A DNA stretch of 36,251 nucleotides, taken from positions 1 to 36,251 of IMG/VR virus record IMGVR_UViG_3300010396_001254; one strand, 5' to 3'. Positions 1 through 36,251 of the stretch are shown in pieces. The notes under the pieces are model-generated. The model did not search any database. It saw nothing but the letters and a program-made list of their open reading frames with translations, and was not told the DNA's origin. Source of the stretch: a virus. The position numbers and the translations under genes were made by a program. The stretch's first letter is position 1; each line of letters starts with the position of its first letter.

Positions 1-972
1 ATGGCGAGCATCTACAGGCAGGGACGGCGCTGGCGGGCGCAGGTGTACGTGCGTGGCCAGCGGGCCTCGGACGTGTTCGACACCAAGGCGCAGGCCGCCG
101 CCTGGGCGCTGGAGCGCGAGGCAGAGTTGGCGGGCGACACGCTGCCGGACAAGACGCTGGCGGAAGCGCTGGAGCGGTACGCGCGCGAAGTGGCACCGGG
201 CCACAAGGGGTATGTGTGGGAGTCTCGGCGGCTCAAGGCGCTCGGTACGCATGCGGTGGCGCGCAAGCGGCTGCAGGCATTGGCGGGTGCGGACATCGCC
301 GGCTGGCGTGACGACCGGTTGAGGAGGGTGCAGCCGGCGTCGGTATTGCGCGAGATGAAGCTGCTGCACTCGGTGCTGGAAAGCTGCCGGCGCGATTTCG
401 GCTGGCTGCGCGACAACCCGATGAAGGATGTGACGCGACCCACGGCGCCGCCCAGTCGTAAGCGGCGCGTCACCGCGGACGAGATCGAGCGGCTGTGCCT
501 GGGCTTCGGCCTGGGCGAGCAGCTGGCCGCGGAAACGGCCACGCAGCGCGTGGGGCTGGCGTTTCTGTTCGCGCTGGAAACCGCGATGCGGGCCGGCGAG
601 GTGCTGGGGCTGCACTGGCCGGATATCGAACTGACCGGCCGCTATGTGCGGCTGCCAAAGACCAAGAACGGCGACGCGCGCGAAGTACCGCTGACCTTGC
701 GCGCCGTGGCGATTCTGGAAGTGCTGCCGGTGACCGATGGTCCGGCGTTCGGAGTGGCCGAGCCGACGCGTGATGCGCTGTTCCGCAAGATCCGGGCGCG
801 CGCCGCGCTGGATGACCTGCATTTCCACGACAGTCGCGCCGAGGCAATCTGGCGATTGTCGAAGAAGCTGGATGTGTTGCAGCTGGCCCGGGTTATCGGG
901 CACCGCGACCTGAAGTCGCTGATGATCTATTACAACGAGAGCGCGAGCGAGCTGGCTAGGCAGCTCGATTGA
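1..972 (+). CDS. int: Prophage tyrosine recombinase (integrase)
   Basis: Site-specific recombinase of 323 residues that should integrate and, with an excisionase, excise this prophage. The N-terminal ~60 residues look like a small arm-type DNA-binding domain, residues ~50-140 a core-binding SAM-like domain, and the C-terminal half the catalytic domain. Visible active-site residues are R196 (AMRAGE), a lysine in KTKNGD near 220, H276-x-x-R279 (HDSR), H301 (GHRD) and the nucleophile at Y310 or Y311 (YYNES). The ATG is base 1, so its ribosome-binding site and attL lie outside. It converges on the excisionase-like gene with a 17-bp overlap. Family assignment is firm; target site is inferred from the right end of the prophage. 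Confidence 0.95.
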   Translation: MASIYRQGRRWRAQVYVRGQRASDVFDTKAQAAAWALEREAELAGDTLPDKTLAEALERYAREVAPGHKGYVWESRRLKALGTHAVARKRLQALAGADIAGWRDDRLRRVQPASVLREMKLLHSVLESCRRDFGWLRDNPMKDVTRPTAPPSRKRRVTADEIERLCLGFGLGEQLAAETATQRVGLAFLFALETAMRAGEVLGLHWPDIELTGRYVRLPKTKNGDAREVPLTLRAVAILEVLPVTDGPAFGVAEPTRDALFRKIRARAALDDLHFHDSRAEAIWRLSKKLDVLQLARVIGHRDLKSLMIYYNESASELARQLD

Positions 973-1198
973 CGCTGCGGCGGTAGTTTTCCGCCCATTC
1001 CTCCACCTCGGATTTTTTCCACGTCTTGACCTTGCCCAGCGGCAGCGGCTTGGGGAAGTTCGGCTTGCAGGCGATCGTTTCGAGGAAGGTTCGGCGCGTG
1101 ATGCCGCCGAGGTAGGCCGCGCAGGCATCGGCGGAAAGCCAACGATCGCCAGTAACCAGGGCGGCGATCATGGCAACGGGGTCGTGGTGTTCGTTCAT
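956..1198 (-). CDS. AlpA/excisionase-like small DNA-binding protein
   Basis: An 80-residue protein starting MNEHHDPVAM. The middle reads as a winged-helix MerR/AlpA-type excisionase: WLSADACAAYLGGITRRTF resembles the first helices, then FPKPLPLGKVKTWKKSEVEEW, the usual pattern of a substrate-contacting wing and a W-containing helix. The start ATG overlaps the stop of the upstream gene (ATGA), so the two are probably translationally coupled. It is the last gene of the leftward operon and converges on the integrase, the usual place for an excisionase. The function as recombination directionality factor is inferred from fold pattern and position; a transcriptional regulator is the alternative. 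Confidence 0.75.
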   Translation of the reverse strand: MNEHHDPVAMIAALVTGDRWLSADACAAYLGGITRRTFLETIACKPNFPKPLPLGKVKTWKKSEVEEWAENYRRSVNRAA

Positions 1199-1548
1199 GC
1201 GGCGATCCGCTCCGGCAATTCTGTCTGTTCTGGATTGACGCTGGCGGTGTCCTGGTGTCGCGGGCTGAGCAAGCGCGGAAGCGCGCGCCGGAGGCCGTCG
1301 AGCACACGCGACCAACCGATGCGCGGATGCCACGGCCGTCCGTCGACGACTGCGCGGTAGCTGTCGATGCGCTGCGTGCGGAAAAGCTCGATGGTATGCG
1401 TTACAGGCGTGACGCCATCGAAGTCTTCAATGGTGATACGACGGCGAAGCAACGGCGGCTGCCAAATGGGCTCGCGCTGTTCTTCGGGCTCGACATCGGG
1501 TCGGTGCCGTTCGCGTCGTGCTTGGTATTTTCGCGTTCGCCGATACAT
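1195..1548 (-). CDS. Hypothetical protein next to the cassette array
   Basis: A 117-residue, arginine-rich (basic) protein of unknown function, starting MYRRTRKYQARRERH. A proline-rich stretch (EEQREPIWQPPLLRRR) precedes a likely folded part (ITIEDFDGVTPVTHTIELFRTQRIDSYRAVVDG). The start has an AAGG six bases upstream, and the stop overlaps the start of the excisionase-like gene (ATGA). It lies directly downstream of the damaged last attC of the integron cassettes, so it is either the original phage gene at the insertion point or the remains of a further cassette. I do not recognise the family. Confidence 0.6.
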   Translation of the reverse strand: MYRRTRKYQARRERHRPDVEPEEQREPIWQPPLLRRRITIEDFDGVTPVTHTIELFRTQRIDSYRAVVDGRPWHPRIGWSRVLDGLRRALPRLLSPRHQDTASVNPEQTELPERIAA

Positions 1549-1586
1549 TGCAGACCTTCAACGGTTCGGATAATGAGGGTTAGGCG
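1549..1586 (-). other. Truncated attC site (3' end of cassette array)
   Basis: On the minus strand the stop of the 1587-1940 gene is followed by GCCTAAC (1585-1579), an exact match to the attC inverse core RYYYAAC. It is complementary to the GTTAGGC core that opens the same cassette, as expected for one cassette's two ends. No matching GTTRRRY core or paired arm follows before the next gene starts at 1548, so this attC looks deleted on one side. Confidence 0.5.
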
Positions 1587-1940
1587 TCACTTGAACTTTT
1601 CGCGGTACGGGCGGCAGCCGTTGCTCATGAAGTGCGCGCTAAGCCCCTGCACGCGCGCTTTGGGGCACTCCGGCACATCGTCCGTGCTGTCGCCGCCATA
1701 CCACACGTTTTCAACATCCGGCCGTGCGTGCAGGAGCATCAACACCGCGCACAGTTCGGGCCACGGTCCGCGCTCGTATCCTTCGCCGTAGTAGCGCGCC
1801 AGCGTGTCAATCTCGTGCGTGGCACCCTCTGGTGCGCGTTCCTGGTCTGCGGGTTGCAGCGTGTAGCCTTTCGGCAGTGGAAACTCAAATTCGTCGGTGG
1901 CGTCGCGCAACCGTGCGTAAATGCGTGCATCAATTCCCAT
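1587..1940 (-). CDS. Integron-cassette hypothetical protein (MGIDARIY family)
   Basis: A 117-residue acidic protein of unknown function starting MGIDARIYARLRD. The start is chosen because a CAGGAGA ribosome-binding site lies 7-8 bases upstream; a longer in-frame start at 1991 would lie inside the attC site. The gene sits exactly as a cassette gene does: 22 bases after a GTTAGGC core (1968-1962) and ending two bases before an inverse core GCCTAAC. No membrane segment or signal peptide is visible; the C-terminal part has conserved-looking tryptophans and cysteine (WYGGDSTDDVPECPKA). I infer that it is mobile cargo; its role is unknown. Confidence 0.75.
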   Translation of the reverse strand: MGIDARIYARLRDATDEFEFPLPKGYTLQPADQERAPEGATHEIDTLARYYGEGYERGPWPELCAVLMLLHARPDVENVWYGGDSTDDVPECPKARVQGLSAHFMSNGCRPYREKFK

Positions 1941-1961
1941 TGTTGTCTCCTGTTTGGTGGC

Positions 1962-2031
1962 GCCTAACTCTGCGGTCAACCGGAAGCTCACCCGCTACGC
2001 GGGTTCGCTCCGGTTACCTTGGCCGTTAGCC
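1962..2031 (-). repeat. Integron attC site A
   Basis: A 70-bp imperfect palindrome bounded by GCCTAAC (1962-1968) and GTTAGCC (2025-2031) on the plus strand. The arms GTCAACCGGA and TCCGGTTAC pair with one unpaired base, the extrahelical base typical of attC, and the centre is a CCCGC-TAC-GCGGG hairpin. On the minus strand it closes the zinc-ribbon cassette and opens the 1587-1940 cassette. Confidence 0.8.
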
Positions 2032-2225
2032 GGCAGGCTCGGATCGCGTGTGATGTGCTTGCCGGCTGCGTCGTAGTACATCGTTTCGGCAAAGTCGCCG
2101 TCATCGCATTTGTCGCATCGCACTTCCAAGCGCACCGCTTCCGGGTAGTCTGTATCAGTGCGCTCCGCTGCCATCTCGCGCTTGCAGTACGGGCAGCGCA
2201 GCAGGATGTGTGTTTCAAGGTTCAC
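1995..2225 (-). CDS. Integron-cassette zinc-ribbon protein
   Basis: A 76-residue protein with two cysteine pairs, CPYCK near residue 11 and CDKC near 37, spaced as in a zinc ribbon. It probably binds zinc and may contact nucleic acid or a protein partner. The start is GTG (MNLETHILL) with GGGAGG seven bases upstream. The last ~11 codons lie inside attC site A, which is common for integron cassette genes. The gene opens 14 bases after the GTTAGCC core at 2245-2239. Its start overlaps the 3' end of the Lar-like gene by 11 bases. The zinc ribbon is visible; the function is not known. Confidence 0.75.
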   Translation of the reverse strand: MNLETHILLRCPYCKREMAAERTDTDYPEAVRLEVRCDKCDDGDFAETMYYDAAGKHITRDPSLPANGQGNRSEPA

Positions 2226-2472
2226 TGGTTGGCCTCCCGGCTAACTCTGCGTCCGAGCGGACCGGGTTCCCCGGCCGCTCAACTTGGTCGTTAGGCGGCA
2301 ATCGCTTGTTCCACACTTTGATTGCAACATCCTCGGTCTGGCATGGAGGGTCAATGGGTCCAAAATGGCATTCCATGTCTTCCGCGCAAGCAGCAAACCA
2401 AAGCTGTCCTGCTTTGTAGGTCTTCGCTTTGCCACCGCAAAACGGGCAAGGCATGCAGTTTTCATTGCTCAT
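2215..2472 (-). CDS. Lar-like restriction alleviation protein (integron cassette)
   Basis: An 85-residue protein whose first ~60 residues follow the Lar pattern: CPFCGGKAKTYKAG, then a second cysteine pair region (CAEDMEC), and the closing motif AIKVWNKR. Lar of the Rac prophage relieves type I restriction of foreign DNA by stimulating modification. The start has GGAG seven bases upstream and overlaps the stop of the HNH gene (ATGA). The C-terminal ~25 residues are encoded by attC site B and the first bases of the next cassette, so they are unlikely to be functional. An anti-restriction role is inferred from family resemblance; many Lar-like zinc ribbons have no tested function. Confidence 0.7.
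   Translation of the reverse strand: MSNENCMPCPFCGGKAKTYKAGQLWFAACAEDMECHFGPIDPPCQTEDVAIKVWNKRLPPNDQVERPGNPVRSDAELAGRPTSEP
2239..2296 (-). repeat. Integron attC site B
   Basis: A 58-bp imperfect palindrome bounded by GGCTAAC (2239-2245) and GTTAGGC (2290-2296). Inner arms GAGCGG and CCGCTC pair around a small GC-rich hairpin. On the minus strand it closes the Lar-like cassette and opens the zinc-ribbon cassette; the GTTAGCC core is exactly complementary to the GGCTAAC of site A, as the two ends of one cassette must be. Confidence 0.8.
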
Positions 2473-2978
2473 GTGAGTGCTCCGGGGTTGCCCCCTAACA
2501 ATTCATTCAAGGCGGACGGCTGCGCCGCCGCTTGATTCAGGGGGTTACAATTCCCCCGCCGCCACGTCTGCCCTTTCCAGATGGCATGGATCGCACTTGG
2601 GTTGACGCCGTGGCGTTCGGCCAGCAGGCGGGCCGTGTGCAGGGTGCGGCTTTTGTGGGCGCGGCGGATGTCGATCACGTCGGCGGGGGTGAGCGTGGCG
2701 CCGACGCCGGCGCGCTGGGCTTCGGCCAGGGGGATGGCGCGCAGGTGCGCCGGGTTGCAGCAGGTGCGGCTGTGGCAACTGGCCACCACCACCAGCGCTT
2801 CCGGCAACGCACCCCATAGCGTTTCCCACATCCAGCGCGCAGCGGTCATGCGGCGGCGGCGGTGTTGCTTGCGCGCGTAGCCCTTGGCATCCACGGTGCC
2901 CAGCCATTCCCAGCAGGCCGTCGGGTCGCGTGGCAGCCGCACCATCGGCTTGATGGTGGTGCCCTCAACGTGCGGCAT
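2469..2978 (-). CDS. HNH-like phage endonuclease, C-terminus altered by attC
   Basis: A 169-residue protein starting MPHVEGTTIK with GGAGGG five bases upstream. Residues ~17-80 match the phage HNH endonuclease pattern: CWEWLG...GYAR, AARWMWETLWG, and SCHSRTCCNPAHL, the cysteine-containing zinc-like half with the closing N-P-x-H-L. The first histidine of the usual LxHxC motif is replaced (VVVASC), so nuclease activity is doubtful. A helix-turn-helix-like tail (PADVIDIRRAHKSRT...HGVNPSAIHAIWKGQTW) follows, as in many homing-type relatives. The last ~24 residues read straight through attC site C and stop at the start of the Lar-like gene (ATGA). I infer that the cassettes inserted at the 3' end of this phage gene. 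Confidence 0.65.
   Translation of the reverse strand: MPHVEGTTIKPMVRLPRDPTACWEWLGTVDAKGYARKQHRRRRMTAARWMWETLWGALPEALVVVASCHSRTCCNPAHLRAIPLAEAQRAGVGATLTPADVIDIRRAHKSRTLHTARLLAERHGVNPSAIHAIWKGQTWRRGNCNPLNQAAAQPSALNELLGGNPGALT
2493..2550 (-). repeat. Integron attC site C
   Basis: A 58-bp site bounded by CCCTAAC (2493-2499) and GTTACAA (2544-2550). The arms around TTCAAGGCGG and CCGCTTGAttc pair with an unpaired base and a GGACGGCTGCGCCG centre. The TAACAATTCATTCAAG start is very like well-known proteobacterial cassette attC sites. It opens the Lar-like cassette on the minus strand (core GTTAGGG). Its outer core (TTGTAAC on the minus strand) is a poor RYYYAAC match and lies inside the HNH gene. 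Confidence 0.8.
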
Positions 2979-4413: not shown

Positions 4414-4646
4414 GCGCCCGGCTCCCCGCGCAGGTGGGCGATGGCGGCCTGCGCCTCGCGCCGCGCGCTGCGCTGGGCCAGTTCGTTGCCGGCTTCGCGC
4501 TCGGCGTGGATGGCGCGTACCAGCGTGGCCACGTTGTGGCGGATGCAGGCGACTTTCTCGGCCAGCTGTTTCTCGCCGGCCAGCACCAGCTCGAACTCGG
4601 CGCGGCGCAAGGTGTCGCTGGCGTGCGGCACGGTTTGGCAGGTCAT
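4410..4646 (-). CDS. Hypothetical helical phage protein
   Basis: A 78-residue protein starting MTCQTVPHASDTLRRAEFELVLAGEKQLAEKVACIRHNVATLVRAIHAERE. Heptad-like leucine and alanine spacing suggests a helical hairpin or coiled coil. GGGAG precedes the ATG by nine bases. Start and stop both overlap neighbouring genes by ATGA junctions, which supports it as real coding sequence. Function unknown. Confidence 0.6.
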   Translation of the reverse strand: MTCQTVPHASDTLRRAEFELVLAGEKQLAEKVACIRHNVATLVRAIHAEREAGNELAQRSARREAQAAIAHLRGEPGA

Positions 4647-34902: not shown

Positions 34903-35015
34903 ATGCCTGACCGTCCCTCTCATTCGAAGCGGTCCGATTGAATCCAACGAAAATTGGGGGCATATTTGGGGACACATGAACCAAAGGCATGAACCTCTAC
35001 TTTGGAGATGCCCCC

Positions 35016-36251
35016 ATGGCCCTGACCGATACCGCCATTCGCAAGGCTGCCCCACGCGACAAGCCATACAAGTTGTCGGACGGGGGTGGCATGTACCTGG
35101 AAGTGATGCCGACCGGTGCGAAATACTGGCGGCTCAAGTATCGGATGACCGGCAAAGAGAAGCGATTTGCACTGGGTGTATACCCGATGGTGTCCCTGGC
35201 CAGCGCCAGGCAGGGACGTGAGGAAGCCCGCAAGCTGCTAGTGCAAGGCGTCGATCCCAGCGCAGCACGTCAGGAAGCCAAACAAACGAAGGCCGAGGTA
35301 ATCGCAATTGCGGCCGTCACCTTCGAGACCGTAGGCCGCGAGTGGATGGGCAGGCAAGAGGTGGCCGAGGTGACGGCTAACAAAACCCGATGGATCCTGG
35401 AGACCTTCCTGTTTCCCGAGATCGGCAGCCGACCTATCTCCGAGATCATACCGCGCGAGCTGCTGGCCGCCCTGCGCAAGATCGAGGAAAGCGGCAAGCT
35501 GGAAACGGCCAAACGGGCCAAGATCAAGGCGGGACAGATATTTCGCTACGCGGTGCTGGAAGGCAAGGCCAAAACTGATCCGACCACCAGCTTGCGTGGT
35601 GCGTTGAAGCCGCCGAAGAATCGGCACCATGCCGCCATTACTGATCCCGTTAAGGTCGGTGAGTTGCTGCGCGCTATCGACGGTTTCACTGGGCAGCCTG
35701 TCACGTTAGCCGCTCTGAAGTTGGCGCCTCTGGTGTTTGTGCGTCCCGGCGAGCTGAGGCAAGCAGAGTGGACGGAAATCGACTTAGACGGAGCCATGTG
35801 GAGGATCCCACCCGAGCGCATGAAGATGAATGCCGCTCATTTGGTGCCGCTCTCCAAACAGGTTCTGTTGATTCTGCGGGAACTGCATCCGTTGACTGGT
35901 ACTGGTCGCTACGTGTTCCCAGGTCTGCGCTCCGCCAGCCGGCCTATAAGCGAAAATACGGTGAACGCGGCGCTGCGACGACTTGGCTATTCCAACGACG
36001 AGATGACCGGTCACGGTTTCCGCAGCCTGGCTGCTACTCGTCTCAATGAAATGGGCTGGAATTCGGACGCCATCGAGCGCCAGCTGGCGCATGCCGAATC
36101 GAACAAGGTTCGCGAGGCTTATACCCATGCCGCTCAGTATCTGGACGAGCGTAAGCGCATGATGCAGGTATGGGCGGACTATTTGGGTGCACTGCGTGCG
36201 GGCGGCCAGAAGAGGAACCAAAAAAATATAGATAGTCCATTGAATGCCTAG
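35016..36251 (+). CDS. P4-type integrase (DUF4102 family) of a second element
   Basis: A 411-residue recombinase starting MALTDTAIRKAAPRDKPYKLSDGGGMYLEV, the DUF4102 arm-binding domain (~1-90; YWRLKYRMTGKEKRFALGVYP). A core-binding domain follows (~100-200), then the catalytic part, with R243 (FVRPGEL), H333-G-F-R336, H359 (LAHAES) and Y369 (EAYTHA). Start 35016 is chosen over 34989 because it gives the family's MALTDTAI opening and GGAG lies nine bases upstream. GGGGGCATATTTGGGGACA just upstream resembles att-like sequences of this family. It belongs to an element extending beyond the window. Confidence 0.93.
   Translation: MALTDTAIRKAAPRDKPYKLSDGGGMYLEVMPTGAKYWRLKYRMTGKEKRFALGVYPMVSLASARQGREEARKLLVQGVDPSAARQEAKQTKAEVIAIAAVTFETVGREWMGRQEVAEVTANKTRWILETFLFPEIGSRPISEIIPRELLAALRKIEESGKLETAKRAKIKAGQIFRYAVLEGKAKTDPTTSLRGALKPPKNRHHAAITDPVKVGELLRAIDGFTGQPVTLAALKLAPLVFVRPGELRQAEWTEIDLDGAMWRIPPERMKMNAAHLVPLSKQVLLILRELHPLTGTGRYVFPGLRSASRPISENTVNAALRRLGYSNDEMTGHGFRSLAATRLNEMGWNSDAIERQLAHAESNKVREAYTHAAQYLDERKRMMQVWADYLGALRAGGQKRNQKNIDSPLNA

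What the first reader, a model, noticed from the sequence alone, without database searches (positions are those of the whole stretch)
1549..2550. Integron attC cassettes inside a prophage early operon
Three attC-like sites (1962-2031, 2239-2296, 2493-2550) with GTTRRRY/RYYYAAC cores, pairing arms and unpaired bases are interleaved with small leftward genes, and core pairs match as cassette ends should (GTTAGCC with GGCTAAC; GTTAGGC with GCCTAAC). No integron integrase is present, so this is a CALIN-like cluster carried by a temperate phage. Phages carrying cassettes would be vehicles for moving integron cargo between hosts.
Basis: partly seen in the sequence, partly recalled or inferred. Interest (0 to 1): 0.9.

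Follow-up and report, generated by a model that had tools for sequence, protein, structure and literature searches.

The report
Phage attI site holding integron cassettes
This phage carries three genuine integron gene cassettes at a dedicated docking site that recurs in some 30 other phage contigs with ever-changing cargo and no integron integrase, so phages appear to run swappable gene arrays, probably using the enzyme of the bacteria they infect.

Summary
A covariance model built from 39 chromosomal attC sites finds exactly two sites in the window, 1962-2031 (38.3 bits) and 2239-2296 (35.5 bits). The third (2493-2550) fails that model but is 93% identical over 41 bp to attC sites of a bacterial-type array. 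The interpretation needs extending. (1) The array starts at a conserved attI-like site (1551-1585: an 18-mer, 10-11 bp, G|TTRRRY) beside a small unknown gene (1195-1548, here 'MYRR'). This site precedes 30 of 31 MYRR relatives found in IMG/VR, most with attC arrays of different cargo. (2) Phage cassette genes run against attC polarity (44 against, 2 along); chromosomal arrays show 1 against, 22 along. (3) The cassettes move: near-identical phages diverge at G|TT, and two otherwise unrelated phages share one cassette bounded by the cores. (4) No phage record encodes IntI. MYRR-attI also sits in bacterial chromosomes with normally oriented cassettes; one such genome has a full IntI whose own attI shares the core CTAATAAGCT|GTTAT. 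Best reading: an integrase-less integron platform that borrows host IntI. Recombination and MYRR function are untested. Phage CALINs were known; this platform appears undescribed in the papers searched.

The parts
1551..1585 (+). attI-like site: 18-mer CAGACCTTCAACGGTTCG, spacer GATAATGAGG, core G|TTAGGC (1579-1585)
   Evidence: Conserved at the array end in 30/31 MYRR loci, 18-mer-to-core spacing 10-11 bp; information up to 1.79 bits in the 18-mer against about 0.1 in the flank
1195..1548 (-). 'MYRR' gene, 117 aa, no Pfam/PHROG/NCBIfam match; lies where intI lies in an integron (beside attI, pointing away from the array)
   Evidence: Alignment A2 of 14 relatives, 34-77% identity to this one; no family; AF2 pLDDT 73, four strands and a helix, no convincing fold match
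1580..2025 (+). Cassette 1 (446 bp) in attC polarity, ends TTAGGC...G
   Evidence: Core pair GTTAGGC/GCCTAAC
1587..1940 (-). Gene of cassette 1, 117 aa, no family; distant relatives occur in three other phage contigs and a Steroidobacter MAG
1962..2031 (+). attC1
   Evidence: PWM 40.2 bits; covariance model 38.3 bits, E=1.3e-7
2026..2290 (+). Cassette 2 (265 bp)
   Evidence: Core pair GTTAGCC/GGCTAAC
1995..2225 (-). Gene of cassette 2, 76 aa, zinc-ribbon-like; its C-terminus is encoded by attC1
   Evidence: Weak Lar/zinc-ribbon matches below cut-off
2239..2296 (+). attC2
   Evidence: PWM 42.9 bits; covariance model 35.5 bits, E=6.6e-7
2291..2544 (+). Cassette 3 (254 bp)
   Evidence: Core pair GTTAGGC/CCCTAAC, one mismatch
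2215..2472 (-). Gene of cassette 3, Lar-type restriction alleviation protein, 85 aa, reading through attC2
   Evidence: PF14354 33.1 bits against a cut-off of 28.6; phrog_599
2493..2550 (+). attC3, last attC; its R' GTTACAA would come from the phage backbone
   Evidence: 93% over 41 bp to attC of L074, same polarity; not found by the covariance model
2469..2978 (-). HNH endonuclease gene interrupted near its 3' end; its C-terminus now reads into attC3
   Evidence: PF13392; homology to L001/L002 ends at 2555; joining the flanks gives ...WRRGNCNPHYPNR*
956..1198 (-). AlpA/excisionase-like gene
1..972 (+). Phage tyrosine integrase, not IntI
   Evidence: PF00589, phrog_1; IntI model far below cut-off

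Best explanation
The window carries an integrase-less integron platform: a conserved attI-like site beside the MYRR gene, with three gene cassettes inserted between it and the HNH gene. Cassettes enter and leave at G|TT (shown by comparison). A resident bacterial IntI supplied in trans most likely folds the attC bottom strand and recombines it with the phage attI (inferred). Because attI fixes the insertion polarity and the phage early transcript runs toward MYRR, only cassettes whose gene is reversed relative to attC are read by the phage, so such cassettes are enriched (reversal shown, cause inferred). The cargo is small early-phage functions such as restriction alleviation, DNA methyltransferases and ASCH proteins, probably a quickly exchanged counter-defence set (inferred from families). 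The role of MYRR is unknown; it or the palindromic 18-mer may help to recruit the recombinase (speculative).
For: attC identity. The attI-like site in 30/31 MYRR loci at fixed spacing to the core, even where its distance to the MYRR start varies (L017, L020); a DNA-only search for the motif found four further contigs, three with MYRR next to it. Every covariance-model attC hit in the phage loci has one polarity. Turnover: L099/L105 (95% over 8.1 kb) and L102/L107 (97% over several kb) lose homology at the core. L018 and L020 share no other DNA but one cassette, from GTTAGGG to GCCCTAAC. Gene orientation 44:2 against 1:22 (Fisher p=1e-14). Trans IntI: none in phage records, many array-bearing records without any tyrosine recombinase; G709 has a full IntI, and its own attI and its MYRR attI share CTAATAAGCTGTTAT; G614, a prophage host, has an IntI C-terminal part at a contig end.
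Against: No recombination experiment. Phage records are mostly fragments, so a phage recombinase could be missed. The 18-mer is absent from the chromosomal attI sites examined, which might mean a dedicated recombinase. IntI is common in the class (137 of 369 genomes over cut-off), so finding it in both MYRR hosts tested is weak. The host of this phage is unknown. The source of reversed cassettes is unexplained.
Confidence: 0.72

Rival explanations
1. Ordinary CALIN: a fragment of a chromosomal cassette array carried into the phage by accident, with no dedicated site.
For: Phage CALINs are known (PMC9892861); no IntI; attC3 closely resembles a bacterial-type attC.
Against: Same attI-like boundary and position in about 30 phage contigs, reversed genes, core breakpoints and a shared cassette.
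Confidence: 0.05
2. A phage-encoded recombinase, not host IntI, moves the cassettes at the phage attI.
For: The conserved 18-mer is specific to MYRR loci and absent from chromosomal attI examined; some of these phages carry tyrosine recombinases beside MYRR.
Against: No tyrosine recombinase in several 31-43 kb array-bearing records (G010, G011, G396, G397, G403, G404, G408); none is common to all; attC sites are of standard IntI type; the G709 MYRR attI shares its core with the host attI.
Confidence: 0.17
3. The hairpins act as RNA elements (terminators, stabilisers, translational couplers) in the early operon and no recombination is involved.
For: They lie between genes of one operon and fold well on either strand.
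Against: They match attC by sequence and polarity, not only by structure; breakpoints fall at G|TT; a cassette is shared between otherwise unrelated phages with ends at the cores.
Confidence: 0.03

Closest known systems
Sedentary chromosomal integron (intI-attI-cassette array)
   Same: attI-like site next to a gene pointing away from the array, attC sites of the same sequence and structure type, cassettes inserted at G|TTRRRY
   Different: No intI; a 100-117 aa gene of unknown family in its place; an 18-mer palindrome in the attI; genes reversed relative to attC in phages
CALIN (cluster of attC sites lacking an integron integrase)
   Same: Two or more attC sites, no IntI gene nearby
   Different: Has a conserved attI-like site at a conserved locus and signs of recent turnover; CALINs are defined without attI
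Phage CALINs and integrons of Qi et al. 2023 (PMC9892861), e.g. Tetrasphaera phage TJE1
   Same: attC cassettes in phage genomes, some carrying methyltransferases; their attC were shown there to recombine with attI1 by IntI1
   Different: TJE1 attC and genes run the same way and the MYRR motif is not reported there; the paper describes separate cases, not a recurrent phage attI locus

Membership tests
Integron gene cassettes (attC) | R''/R' cores RYYYAAC...GTTRRRY with pairing L''/L' arms and an extrahelical base | tested here: met
   attC1 and attC2 by PWM and covariance model; attC3 by similarity only, its R' is GTTACAA
Integron gene cassettes (attC) | Cassette bounded by matching cores; homology between cassettes ends at G|TT | tested here: met
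   Core pairs in the window; shared cassette L018/L020 bounded by cores
Integron gene cassettes (attC) | Recombination by an integron integrase through the folded bottom strand | not testable with these tools
   No experiment available
Complete integron | intI gene beside attI | tested here: not met
   No TIGR02249 match over cut-off in G000 or any related phage record
Complete integron | attI site at the start of the array | tested here: met
   Conserved attI-like site in 30/31 loci; core shared with the host attI in G709; function untested
Complete integron | Cassette genes mostly co-oriented with attC, read outward from Pc | tested here: not met
   44 against, 2 along in phages; 22 along, 1 against in chromosomal controls; Pc not tested
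CALIN | At least two attC sites without a nearby intI | tested here: met

The most novel reading that the evidence does not exclude
MYRR plus attI is a dedicated element, an integron without an integrase, that has spread among phages and bacterial chromosomes, hijacks resident IntI through an attI with an extra palindromic recruiting element (bound by MYRR or by IntI), and gives phages an exchangeable, reverse-oriented early-gene array.
Probability: 0.45. Interest if true: 0.93.

Novelty: new variant of a known kind. Interest (0 to 1): 0.88.

Why it matters
Integrons are regarded as bacterial devices; phage cassettes have been reported as scattered acquisitions. A recurrent phage attI with changing cargo would make phages users of the integron system, give a mechanism for the mosaic small-gene arrays of phage early regions, and link counter-defence genes to a known recombination chemistry. 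It yields direct tests: does IntI act on this attI, does MYRR matter, and do cassettes pass between phage and chromosomal arrays?

Tried and rejected
Rfam gave no hit, so models were built here. DNA searches of named phages and plasmids found no relative apart from one 46-bp plasmid hit, nor did MYRR tblastn. MYRR in Gammaproteobacteria with the first alignment: none of 369; the wider alignment found two good matches among 398 genomes of the phylum and five more genomes in the family of one of them. PDB fold search of MYRR gave nothing convincing (best Z 4.1, Foldseek E 0.46), so no function is claimed. L001/L002 share the HNH gene without cassettes but have other genes downstream and no MYRR seen in the stretch read, so they are not clean empty sites. 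L015 looked like an empty site, but its excisionase-like gene lies at the cassette position. Polaribacter phage P12002S has no attC detectable by this model. Reading the phage tyrosine recombinases as IntI was rejected on score. Literature searches found no description of reversed phage arrays or a phage attI; papers not held may differ.

Full report
Checking the observation. The window is an IMG/VR virus record of 36,251 bp with integrase, AlpA-like gene, repressor, primase, terminase, capsid and tape measure genes. I trained a position weight matrix on 39 attC sites taken from chromosomal integrons located by their IntI genes. It scores 1962-2031 at 40.2 and 2239-2296 at 42.9 bits on the + strand; the highest score in 600 kb of Markov sequence was 21.6. 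A covariance model of the same 39 sites, with the R and L helices given, finds these two sites (38.3 and 35.5 bits, E=1.3e-7 and 6.6e-7) and nothing else in the window. The third site is not found by either, but its + strand is 93% identical over 41 bp to attC sites of L074, an ordinary bacterial-type array, in the same polarity. I accept it as an attC whose right core (GTTACAA) derives from the backbone, as is expected of the last attC in an array.

Anatomy. Read on the + strand, the array is: core G|TTAGGC at 1579, cassette 1 (1580-2025), cassette 2 (2026-2290), cassette 3 (2291-2544), then backbone. Removing 1580-2544 joins GATAATGAGGG to TTACAATTCCC and restores an HNH reading frame that stops just before the next gene; this reconstruction is an inference, because no exact empty relative was found. 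HNH relatives L001 and L002 match up to position 2555 and then diverge.

Polarity. The attC sites score 40-43 bits on + and 20-22 on -, while the genes lie on -. A rule-based orientation call (ribosome site plus coverage) over arrays gave 44 cassettes with the gene against attC, 2 along and 19 undecided in phages; chromosomal controls gave 1 against, 22 along and 49 undecided (Fisher p=1e-14). The many undecided cases come from the strict rule. In Tetrasphaera phage TJE1, a published phage CALIN, attC and genes run the same way.

A conserved attI-like site. The gene downstream of the array (1195-1548, MYRR) has relatives in 30-odd IMG/VR contigs. In 30 of 31 loci of the widest search a motif lies between MYRR and the array: an 18-mer, consensus CAGACCTTGCACGGTCCG, then 10-11 bp containing TAAT, then GTTA. 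The 31st starts at a contig end. Information content is about 0.1 bit in the flank on the MYRR side, up to 1.79 in the 18-mer, and 1.79 at GTT. The spacing to the core is kept even when the distance to the MYRR start codon changes (L017, L020), so it is not merely a ribosome site. A DNA-only scan for the motif returned known loci plus four new contigs: L075, L077 and L081 have MYRR beside it, L079 has a NinB-like gene instead. The covariance model finds 70 attC hits at E<=0.1 over 39 loci; every hit in the MYRR-bearing phage loci points away from MYRR, none toward it.

Turnover and mobility. L099 and L105 are 95% identical over 8.1 kb, and L102 and L107 97% over several kb, yet homology stops within the core and the other sides are unrelated; L101 breaks at the same point. 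L018 and L020, whose MYRR proteins are 45% identical and which share no other DNA in the stretches held, share one cassette from GTTAGGG to GCCCTAAC, at different positions in the two arrays. These are the marks of cassette recombination at G|TT.

Which recombinase. No record has an IntI match over the cut-off. Several array-bearing records of 31-43 kb show no tyrosine recombinase at all, though records may be incomplete. Among sampled bacteria, MYRR occurs in a prophage (G614) and in chromosomes of one family (G709, G1241, G1304, G1305, G1223, G1282). In the chromosomal cases examined the same attI motif is present in most, no phage genes were recognised around it, and the first genes run outward, that is along attC. 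G709 has a full IntI (452 bits) elsewhere; its own attI ends CCTAATAAGCT|GTTATAA and the MYRR attI ends ACTAATAAGCT|GTTATGT. Both therefore look like substrates of one IntI. G614 carries the C-terminal part of an IntI at a contig end. IntI is common in the class (137 of 369 genomes), so co-occurrence alone is weak evidence.

Interpretation. I take this as an attI platform without integrase, using resident IntI in trans. Shown: attC identity, site conservation, reversal, turnover, cassette sharing, absence of IntI in the records. Inferred: IntI as the enzyme, selection by the phage transcript as the cause of reversal, counter-defence as the benefit (Lar protein here; a cytosine methyltransferase and an ASCH protein elsewhere). 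Unknown: the role of MYRR (no family, no fold match), the origin of reversed cassettes and the host of this phage.

Relation to the literature. Qi et al. 2023 reported 17 CALINs and 4 integrons or In0 elements in phages and showed that phage attC recombine with attI1. Carriage of cassettes by phages is therefore known. The recurrent phage attI locus, its marker gene and the systematic reversal were not found in the papers searched.

Noticed in passing
window 34989-36251 (+): A second tyrosine recombinase gene (420 aa, phrog_1) ends exactly at the record's right end; the left end starts exactly at the other integrase gene, so the record was probably trimmed at gene borders.
   Followed up: partly
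window 1995-2225 and 2215-2472 (-): Because the genes run against attC, genes 2 and 3 read out of their own cassette into the neighbour's attC, so their C-termini depend on which cassette is next to them.
   Followed up: no
L012 2915-3100 (also L010, L011, L023, L024): A second attI-like site with a truncated MYRR copy lies 2 kb upstream of the intact one with more cassettes beyond, a tandem duplication of the platform.
   Followed up: partly
L134, L136, L137, L139, L123: Chromosomal MYRR loci have a further palindrome (CTACCTTACAAGGTAG) between the attI motif and the MYRR start; one genome (G1241) has three MYRR matches. L136-L138 share the same chromosomal neighbours.
   Followed up: no
L079 77-518: The attI-like motif stands before a NinB-like gene instead of MYRR, so the site is not strictly tied to MYRR.
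   Followed up: partly
L073 (38 kb phage record): Three attC sites with reversed genes; the part held shows neither MYRR nor the motif.
   Followed up: partly
L074: IMG/VR record that looks like a plain bacterial cassette array (8 attC, genes along attC), probably misfiled as viral.
   Followed up: partly
window 4428-4502: ARAGORN reports a tRNA with a four-base anticodon inside a coding region; probably false.
   Followed up: no
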